In this document: positions 2,573-41,831 of the stretch, one piece after another | How positions within the stretch are numbered: position 1 is the first letter of the stretch | Layout: each line of letters starts with the position of its first letter | Source of the DNA: Dehalococcoidia bacterium | GTDB taxonomy: Bacteria > Chloroflexota > Dehalococcoidia > Lucifugimonadales > UBA3495 | Direction: 5' to 3' | NCBI GenBank assembly: GCA_009692925.1 | Contig: SHYG01000010.1 | Span: forward strand, 1 to 43,335 | Length of the DNA: 43,335 nt | The notes under the pieces: generated by a model | Told to the model about the DNA's origin: nothing | Databases searched by the model: none | The model's input: only the letters and a program-made list of their open reading frames with translations | Position numbers and translations under genes: made by a program

Positions 2573-2600
2573 TTGGCAGACGAAATCCCCCTTGTATATT
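2573..2600 (+). promoter_or_regulatory. Candidate sigma-70 promoter in the IS110 leader
   Basis: TTGGCA (2573-2578, one mismatch to the -35 consensus) and TATATT (2595-2600, one mismatch to the -10 consensus) are separated by 16 bp. Predicted transcription would start near 2607, leaving about 178 nt of untranslated leader before the transposase ATG. This is inference from consensus matching only. Confidence 0.45.
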
Positions 2601-2606
2601 GACGGA

Positions 2607-2784
2607 CGAGGACGGAGATAAGACCGTATTCCCCCTGGGGCATAATAGCCCGTGGGCGAGATTGGTCTACCCTCCGCCCCTGGCTGAGTGCGGACGGCAT
2701 CTTGGGCCACCAAGCCAGTATAGACAAGGTTGCACCGCCTGGGGCAGGTAGGGCACCGTCCCAACCTAGCGAGGAGGATTTGGG
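2607..2784 (+). ncRNA. Candidate IS110 bridge-RNA leader
   Basis: IS110-family elements of the IS621 group encode a structured bridge RNA of about 177 nt in the non-coding stretch before the transposase, which base-pairs with donor and target DNA. Here a stretch of nearly the same length lies between a plausible promoter and the transposase ATG. Visible pairings are AGACC (2621-2625) with GGTCT (2664-2668) enclosing a GGGC...GCCC hairpin, CTTGG/CCAAG near 2702-2715, and AGGTTG/CAACCT near 2728-2765. Loop-to-DNA complementarity could not be tested because the element ends are not known. Confidence 0.4.
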
Positions 2785-3693
2785 ATGCGTTATCTTGGGG
2801 TAGATGTGGCCAAGGACACCTTGGAAGTGGCTGATGCTTCGGGAAAGCAGCGGCGTTCTTTTCCAAACACGGGGGAAGGCATCGAGGCGTTGCTCCACCG
2901 GCTGGTCCAGGATTTCTGCTCTGAGGAGTTGCACCTGGTGCTGGAACCTACCAGCACCTACCATCATCCCCTGGTGGTGGCGCTGGCGGCCCAGCAGGTT
3001 CCTTACACCCTGATCAATCCCGCCCATACCGCTGCCTTTGCGCGGGTGCAAGGGAAACGGGCTAAGACCGACCGGGTCGATGCCCGGCTGCTGGCCTCCC
3101 TGGGGGAGAGCCAGCAGCCGGAACCCACGCAGCCTCCCCAGGAAGACCAAGAAGAGCTGCGGGCGACACGCCGCCACCTGGAATGGCTGGAACAGGAACT
3201 GCAGCGGGCCCACAACCGGCTGGAGGCGGCCCGCTTCTCCACCTGGACTCCCCAGGCAGTGCTCCAGAGCCTGGAGCGGACCATCCAGCAACTGGAAGAG
3301 GAAGTCTGGCAGGTGCACGAAGCCCTGGAGACTCAACAGCAGGCGCGCCCGGACTGGACCGTCCAGATGAAGCTGCTGACCTCCATTCCTGGCGTGGGCA
3401 AGAAGACCGCGCTGTTGGTGTTGAGTGAGCTGCCGCCGGTGACCAGTTGCGCCAGCGCCAAGAGTTGGGTGGCCTTTTGCGGGCTGAACCCGGAACCTAG
3501 AGACTCGGGGAAAGCCCATCACAGCCGGCTCAGCCGCATGGGCACCGCCAGGGTGCGAGCGGGACTGTATCTGCCCGCGGTGAGCGCCCTGCGCTGCAAC
3601 CCGCTGGTCAAGGCCCTGGGAGACCGACTCAAGGCGCGGGGCAAAATCGGCCGAGTGCGGGTGGTGGCTGCCATGCATAAGCTGCTGCGGTGA
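2785..3693 (+). CDS. IS110-family transposase (C-terminus possibly truncated)
   Basis: RNA-guided DEDD recombinase of the IS110 family. The N-terminal RuvC-like domain shows GVD (Asp7), LEPTSTY with the Glu, and KTDRVDARLLASL with the last two acidic residues. A coiled middle region follows, then the C-terminal Tnp_20 domain with SIPGVGKKTALLVLSEL, a serine-containing RDSGKAHHSRLSRMG segment and VVAAMHKLLR. The start has a GAGGAGG ribosome-binding site. Members usually continue some 10-20 residues after the KLL motif; here TGA follows KLLR directly, so a small truncation or frameshift is possible. No terminal inverted repeats are expected for this family, so the element ends cannot be placed by eye. 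Confidence 0.92.
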   Translation: MRYLGVDVAKDTLEVADASGKQRRSFPNTGEGIEALLHRLVQDFCSEELHLVLEPTSTYHHPLVVALAAQQVPYTLINPAHTAAFARVQGKRAKTDRVDARLLASLGESQQPEPTQPPQEDQEELRATRRHLEWLEQELQRAHNRLEAARFSTWTPQAVLQSLERTIQQLEEEVWQVHEALETQQQARPDWTVQMKLLTSIPGVGKKTALLVLSELPPVTSCASAKSWVAFCGLNPEPRDSGKAHHSRLSRMGTARVRAGLYLPAVSALRCNPLVKALGDRLKARGKIGRVRVVAAMHKLLR

Positions 3694-3826
3694 TGGTGAC
3701 GGGTGTGGGCATTTACGGCTGGTATATAGGATTTTTCCGGTGATGGTCTGGGCGCTGCAAATGGCGCGTCAGCTCCTGTCCAGGCGAGGGCAGTGAGCTG
3801 GACCGACAAGTTCTTACTTATACATA

Positions 3827-4040
3827 GCTAAGAGTGTGTTTAGAAAGTGTCCTTTCCCCCCCTTACGAGGGGGGAGATACAGAGGGGGTGGTCTGCGCCT
3901 AGCGCTGTGCCGCAGAAGTCGGGGCACGACCCCCCTGTAGTCCCCCCTTCGTAAGGGGGGGGCGGGACGGTCCATCCTTCTCCCCCTTTAGATAAGGAGA
4001 GGGACTTTTTAGACCCGCGCCCAGACAGCGCGCTCTAAAA
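3827..4040. repeat. Palindromic MITE-like element R1, copy 1
   Basis: The first half and second half are imperfect reverse complements: CCCTTACGAGGGGGGAGATA pairs with the later TAGTCCCCCCTTCGTAAGGG, and the outer TTTAGAAAGTGTCC pairs with GGGACTTTTTAGAC. A second copy lies at 41650-41831 with most of the same sequence (GCTAAGAG..., TCTAGAAAG, GAGATACAGAGGGGGT, AAGTCGGGGCACGACCCCCC). I see no coding potential. It fills most of the space between the transposase and the broken hydrolase; bases 3694-3826 show nothing I recognise. Confidence 0.75.
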
Positions 4041-41649: not shown

Positions 41650-41831
41650 CGCTAAGAGCGCGTCTAGAAAGCGTCCCTTCTCCCCATTACGAAGGGGGAG
41701 ATACAGAGGGGGTCGTCTGCGCCCAGCGCCGTCCCTATGTCGGGAGGCGCCGCGGCGGAAGTCGGGGCACGACCCCCCCTGTAGTCCCCCCTGCGTAATG
41801 GGGGACGGGTCGGCCCGTGCTTCTCCCACTT
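41650..41831. repeat. Palindromic MITE-like element R1, copy 2
   Basis: Second copy of the element at 3827-4040, same orientation, with CCATTACGAAGGGGGAGATA and the complementary TAGTCCCCCCTGCGTAATGG. It carries a 16-bp insertion in the central loop (CCTATGTCGGGAGGCG region). Bases 41508-41649 hold nothing I recognise. Confidence 0.75.

What the first reader, a model, noticed from the sequence alone, without database searches (positions are those of the whole stretch)
2573..3693. IS110 transposase with a leader of bridge-RNA size
IS621-type IS110 elements use a bridge RNA of about 177 nt upstream of the transposase. Here a consensus-like promoter predicts about 178 nt of structured leader that stops at the ATG, with an outer stem (AGACC/GGTCT) holding a smaller hairpin. 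If real, this is a programmable recombinase from an uncultured lineage, although its C-terminus may be truncated.
Basis: partly seen in the sequence, partly recalled or inferred. Interest (0 to 1): 0.55.

Follow-up and report, generated by a model that had tools for sequence, protein, structure and literature searches.

The report
Truncated IS110 element with bridge RNA
A jumping gene of a known kind, whose enzyme is aimed by its own guide RNA, sits here with the guide RNA gene whole but its right-hand end missing: a genuine but ordinary and probably immobile copy.

Summary
The finding holds, with corrections. ORF 2785-3693 is an IS110-family recombinase; its best solved relative is IS621, and the catalytic residues are kept. 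Copies in relatives put the left end at a CT core, 2591-2592. The 192-nt leader behind it is conserved. A covariance model of it hits 23-133 nt upstream of the recombinase match in 41 of 41 loci checked, and its two-loop structure covaries (26 of 28 pairs; 0 of 500 shuffles). In relatives loop 1 matches target flanks in about half of the copies and loop 2 matches the right end in 23 of 25 rows. In the window the left target guide matches the left flank over 7 nt (15 of 4833 sites do as well). Corrections: the promoter's -35 is host DNA; in relatives a promoter forms at the circle junction. The copy is broken on the right: 23-24 codons, the right end and the right half-target are missing, so two of the four guide pairings cannot be tested here. 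No second copy was found in its draft genome. A new member of a known kind, probably immobile.

The parts
2583..2592 (+). Left half-target (AAATCCCC) plus the CT core (2591-2592); host DNA up to the core
   Evidence: 8 of 10 positions match the left target guide, 7 contiguous; 21 and 15 of 4833 CT sites in the window's host DNA do as well
2573..2600 (+). Promoter-like pair TTGGCA-16-TATATT; the -35 is in host DNA, the -10 in the left end
   Evidence: boundary
2593..2784 (+). Left non-coding end of the element, 192 nt, with the bridge RNA gene
   Evidence: left boundary from relatives' copies; alignment
2608..2682 (+). Target-binding stem-loop (approximate limits), with stem AGACC/GGTCT and hairpin GGGC/GCCC
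2627..2636 (+). Left target guide TATTCCCC-CT
   Evidence: read from the alignment; tested
2654..2660 (+). Right target guide GGGCGAG, predicts right target CTCGCCC; not testable, the right flank is missing
   Evidence: read from the alignment; search
2683..2739 (+). Donor-binding stem-loop (approximate limits)
   Evidence: consensus structure
2694..2702 (+). Left donor guide ACGGCATCT, predicts a right end ACGGCAT-CT; that end is missing
   Evidence: homologous guide matches the right end in relatives
2724..2729 (+). Right donor guide ACAAGG, complementary to CCTTGT at the left end; a short, weak match on its own
   Evidence: ACAAG; sequence
2785..3693 (+). IS110 recombinase, 302 aa, RuvC-like (DEDD) and Tnp domains, lacks the last 23-24 residues
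3690..3691 (.). Break point: similarity to relatives stops here; no right end follows

Best explanation
A single, right-truncated copy of an IS110-group insertion sequence. In intact relatives the recombinase would excise the element as a circle; joining right end to left end builds a promoter that transcribes a bridge RNA (about 150-180 nt) and then the recombinase. Loop 1 of the RNA pairs with the two half-targets and loop 2 with the two element ends, all meeting at a CT core. The window copy keeps the left end, the bridge RNA gene (aimed at about TATTCCCC-CT-CGCCC) and a recombinase gene with its catalytic residues. A deletion, rearrangement or replacement removed the last 23-24 codons, the right end and the right half-target, so it probably cannot excise. 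Shown by sequence: family, left boundary, RNA structure and its covariation, guide matches in relatives, the window's left-target match, the truncation. Inferred: transcription, recombination, loss of mobility.
For: Domains and residues; left end fixed by copies; model hits 23-133 nt upstream of the recombinase match on its strand in 41 of 41 loci; 26 of 28 pairs with two-sided change, 0 of 500 shuffles; right end found in the donor loop in 23 of 25 rows, right flanks matching at p<=0.02 in 13 of 24 rows and left flanks in 11 of 21; target guides changing in step with flanks between L039, L040/L041 and G003; window left target; circle-junction promoter in one register in 6 of 12 junctions; missing right side.
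Against: About half of the flank tests miss, some clearly (right: L052, L065, L069, G003:C366; left: L049, L065, L069, L039). The 7-nt donor matches of the L039/L040/L041 group are individually weak (59-118 of 1000 random host stretches do as well). Contiguous right-donor matches are short everywhere (5-6 nt) and not at the expected sequence in several rows. The window's own fold does not show the consensus donor loop. No RNA data. Rfam has no match.
Confidence: 0.93

Rival explanations
1. The leader is only a structured 5' untranslated region that tunes expression of the recombinase, not a guide RNA.
For: It sits directly upstream of the ORF and folds; no RNA data exist. About half of the flank tests fail.
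Against: The RNA has two covarying stem-loops, and its loop sequences match the element's ends and, in about half of the rows, the insertion flanks; target guides change in step with flanks. A regulatory leader would have no reason to track insertion sites.
Confidence: 0.04
2. The copy is intact in the organism and the missing right end is an assembly fault.
For: Draft genome of 101 contigs, 91% complete. A 10-base repeat CGGTGATGGT lies at 3688-3697 and 3738-3747, at the break. In relatives such elements lie at contig ends.
Against: The contig runs on through the break, and no second place with the C-terminal tail was found in the genome.
Confidence: 0.08
3. The truncated copy is still active in trans: it supplies bridge RNA and a shortened but working recombinase.
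For: Open 302-codon frame, catalytic residues kept, loops kept, a promoter-like pair using a host -35.
Against: No partner copy or matching right end was found in the genome; all full-length relatives whose ends I read (L039, G003) keep the C-terminal tail; no transcription data.
Confidence: 0.05

Closest known systems
IS621 and its bridge RNA (IS110 group; PMC11208160, PMC11208158, passages read; PDB 8wt6)
   Same: Recombinase with the same two domains (E 2.3e-36); long left end with the RNA, short right end in relatives; two-loop RNA, target loop first and donor loop second; CT core; junction promoter in relatives
   Different: Distant sequence; no Rfam match; different guides; the window copy lacks the right end and the last 23-24 codons
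ISEc21 and other IS110-type elements with seekRNA (PMC11187229, passages read)
   Same: Non-coding region upstream of the transposase gene; circle with a junction promoter
   Different: No direct sequence comparison was made here
Chloroflexi MAG elements L039, L040, L041 and the G003 element (unnamed in the records)
   Same: 48%, 44% and 43% protein identity, and 73% over the last 40 residues for G003; homologous leader and ends
   Different: Right end present in L039, L040 and G003; L040's match is split into two frames near codon 242; other target guides

Membership tests
IS110 family recombinase | RuvC-like DEDD domain (PF01548) with its four acidic residues | tested here: met
   E 1.4e-25; D7, E54, D96, D99
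IS110 family recombinase | Tnp domain (PF02371) with the conserved serine | tested here: met
   E 4.9e-19; serine of DSG aligned to IS621
IS110 family recombinase | Complete C-terminus | tested here: not met
   Ends 23-24 codons before relatives
IS110-group element with bridge RNA | Long left end, short right end, CT-type core | tested here: inconclusive
   Met in relatives and for the window's left end; the window's right end is missing
IS110-group element with bridge RNA | Upstream RNA with two internal loops | tested here: met
   Model and covariation; upstream in 41 of 41 loci
IS110-group element with bridge RNA | Loop 1 pairs with the target | tested here: inconclusive
   Window: left half met, right half missing. 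Relatives: 13 of 24 right and 11 of 21 left rows at p<=0.02
IS110-group element with bridge RNA | Loop 2 pairs with the element ends | tested here: inconclusive
   Window: short left-end match only, right end missing. Relatives: right end found in 23 of 25 rows, background
IS110-group element with bridge RNA | RNA expressed, bound by the recombinase, directs recombination | not testable with these tools
   needs experiments
IS1111 group (downstream RNA) | RNA region downstream of the recombinase gene | tested here: not met
   In relatives the right end follows the stop codon within about 25 nt; the RNA is upstream

The most novel reading that the evidence does not exclude
The right-truncated copy is kept for a use of its own: driven by a host -35, it makes bridge RNA and a shortened recombinase that act in trans at other CT-core sites, joining or flipping host DNA. 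The open frame and intact loops do not exclude this.
Probability: 0.03. Interest if true: 0.65.

Novelty: new member of a known kind. Interest (0 to 1): 0.27.

Why it matters
It adds a group of bridge-RNA elements from an uncultured lineage (same order as a Chloroflexi MAG) with mapped ends and a working covariance model. Close relatives show natural retargeting: their target guides differ in step with their insertion sites while the donor guides hardly change. The complete L039 element is a better starting point for a recombinase assay than the window copy.

Tried and rejected
Rfam gave nothing. Viral contigs gave one weak fragment (29% over 90 residues) and none with L039. All plasmid matches are below 60% identity; the 20 listed of 2415 are 34-37%. 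The lost right end was sought by motif in the window and by the relatives' C-terminal tail in the own genome: only the window copy, up to the break. Window 3691-3830 has no match in the other 49 genomes of the family, so no empty site was found. RNAalifold on six leaders gave registers that I did not adopt (5 of 34 pairs with two-sided change); I gave the model a hand-made structure. Two of the three folds (L039, L040) began about 25 nt inside the element. One search returned empty rows for four elements because alignment rows overwrote locus records; one search replaces it. In one search the L075 row has an abnormally long leader (1130 nt); without it the counts are 13 of 23 right, 10 of 20 left and 22 of 24 donor. 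L040 and L041 have too little right flank of their own. The p values are against CT sites in the same loci, uncorrected, and copies of one element are not independent. For the alignment I chose 30 sources: sources that had matched at E<=0.01 less L092, L025, L046, L073 and L074, plus seven of the loci fetched; it is thus a set of hits, fitted to the model's structure. Metagenome scans were capped at 0 and not tried.

Full report
What is there. The ORF at 2785-3693 (302 aa) matches DEDD_Tnp_IS110 (E 1.4e-25) and Transposase_20 (E 4.9e-19). At E<=0.01 it matches two distinct solved sequences, IS621 (8wt6, E 2.3e-36, residues 2-300) and ISCro4 (9t56, E 2.6e-36). D7, E54, D96, D99 and the serine of DSG are present; they correspond to D11, E60, D102, D105 and S241 of IS621 (PMC11208158, passages). 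No second copy was found in the 2.07 Mb, 101-contig draft genome.

Relatives. The closest are L039 (48% over the full length), L040 (44%, match split into two frames) and L041 (43%, cut by a contig end), all titled Chloroflexi MAGs. The L039 protein was found, 100% identical, in a genome of the window's own order, in a search of 250 genomes. G003, of the same family, has a C-terminal stretch 73% identical over 40 residues at a contig edge and further left and right ends at contig edges.

Ends. L039, L040, L041 and G943:C103 agree from CTCGTATC onward and differ to the left; G003:C81 has CTTGTATATT there, and so has the window at 2591. On the right, L039, L040, G943:C28, G943:C15 and G944:C41 end at ACGGCAT-CT, and four G003 contig ends at ACGGTAT-CT. 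Multi-copy relatives give the same picture on comparing their flanks (G017, G766, G195 with G173, G239, G210): mostly CT-TGTATCTT on the left, ACGGTAT-CT or ACAGTTG-CT on the right. So the window's left boundary is the CT at 2591-2592 and the leader is 192 nt (2593-2784).

The leader as RNA. A covariance model from four leaders, the window's included, hit 44 of 65 sources at E<=1 and 28 of 65 at E<=0.01; the four source sequences match by construction. In all 41 of the 44 hits for which I compared positions, the hit lies 23-133 nt upstream of the recombinase match, on its strand; the other three are two contig-end leaders and a decayed copy. In the order, 16 of 250 genomes match at E<=0.001. 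On 30 chosen hits, 90.6% of cells pair, 26 of 28 pairs have a two-sided change, and the covariation score is 0.566 against 0.180 in shuffles (0 of 500 as high) and 0.12 or less for slid registers. That alignment is fitted to the structure, which inflates the counts, but the distance from both controls is large. The structure is two stem-loops with internal loops, as described for bridge RNAs (PMC11208160, passages). Folding energy alone would not have shown this (z -2.0, -0.5, -0.5), and the window's own minimum-energy fold lacks the consensus donor loop.

Guides. In PMC11208160 the first loop pairs with the target and the second with the donor, the 5' side with the bottom strand and the 3' side with the top strand, core included; right-donor pairing is discontiguous; the right end (7-9 nt) is found in sense in the leader in 23 of 25 rows; the two G017 rows miss (by one mismatch, ACGGTTGC against ACAGTTGC, read by eye). 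Single rows are modest against random host stretches: 3-19 of 1000 for G003, 12-29 for the ACAGTTGC group, 37-44 for G766 without L075, 59-118 for the L039 group. Right flanks match the antisense target guide at p<=0.02 in 13 of 24 rows, among them 8 nt in G017 and L049 and 7 nt in three of four G003 ends, G943:C15 and G944:C41. Left flanks match at p<=0.02 in 11 of 21 rows. Rows at p>0.1 are, on the right, L073, L075, L052, L065, L069 and G003:C366; on the left, L039, L049, L065, L069 and G003:C81. Contiguous right-donor matches are short (4-6 nt) and in several rows not the expected bases. The strongest single point is change in step: L039 has GCTCAG and flank CTGAGC; L040 and L041 have AACTCAG, and copies in the same genomes have flank CTGAGTT (one other G943 end, C28, does not); G003 has AGCTCAG and flank CTGAGCT in three of four ends.

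The window copy. Its left target guide TATTCCCC-CT (2627-2636) matches its left flank AAATCCCC-CT at 8 of 10 positions, 7 contiguous with the core; 21 and 15 of 4833 CT sites in the window's host DNA do as well; allowing a match anywhere in the target half of the leader p is 0.0095. ACAAG in the donor loop is complementary to CTTGT at the left end, a short match. The right target guide predicts CTCGCCC and the left donor guide a right end ACGGCATCT; neither occurs between 3691 and 5000. Similarity to relatives stops after codon 302; L039 has 23 and G003 24 more codons before a short right end. The sequence after the break aligns to the G003 tail no better than shuffles do (180 of 500 reach its score), and the tail was found nowhere else in the genome.

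Promoter. In relatives, joining right to left end gives TTGAC(A/T)-17-TAT(C/A)TT in one register in 6 of 12 junctions (9-11 of 12 bases, reached by 0-24 of 1000 shuffles); L039 and L040 have TTGATT-17-TATCTT in that register, no better than their other candidates; the four G195/G173 junctions lack it. The published work reports such junction promoters.

How it works. By homology the intact relatives are RNA-guided recombinases of the IS110 group: excision as a circle, RNA from the junction promoter, target and donor read by two loops, exchange at CT. For the window copy identity, RNA gene and truncation are shown by sequence; transcription, chemistry and loss of mobility are inferred.

Known or new. 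IS110 bridge RNAs and seekRNAs were described in 2024 (PMC11208160, PMC11208158, PMC11187229; passages read). Searches for IS110 with bridge RNA, seekRNA, Chloroflexi and bridge recombinase listed no paper on this group by title or start of abstract (listings only). It is a new member of a known kind, and this copy is damaged.

Noticed in passing
window 3827-4030 and 41651-41831: Dispersed repeat of about 200 nt with long imperfect inverted arms (39 nt, 79% complementary, 3849-3887 / 3930-3968) in many contigs of the genome; seven fetched copies match at 76-89%. Looks like a small non-autonomous mobile element; not named.
   Followed up: partly
window 3688-3697 and 3738-3747: 10-nt direct repeat CGGTGATGGT at the point where the element breaks off and 50 nt further on; may mark the event that removed the right end, or an assembly fault.
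   Followed up: no
L087, about 1434-1579 and onward: In the L039 genome a leader copy is followed by a broken start of the recombinase gene: a decayed relative whose RNA part still scores 65.5 bits.
   Followed up: no
L040, near 3228: The recombinase match of this relative is split between two reading frames.
   Followed up: no
L075, leader: One of four G766 copies seems to have a leader of 1130 nt instead of 271 nt, perhaps an insertion within it.
   Followed up: no
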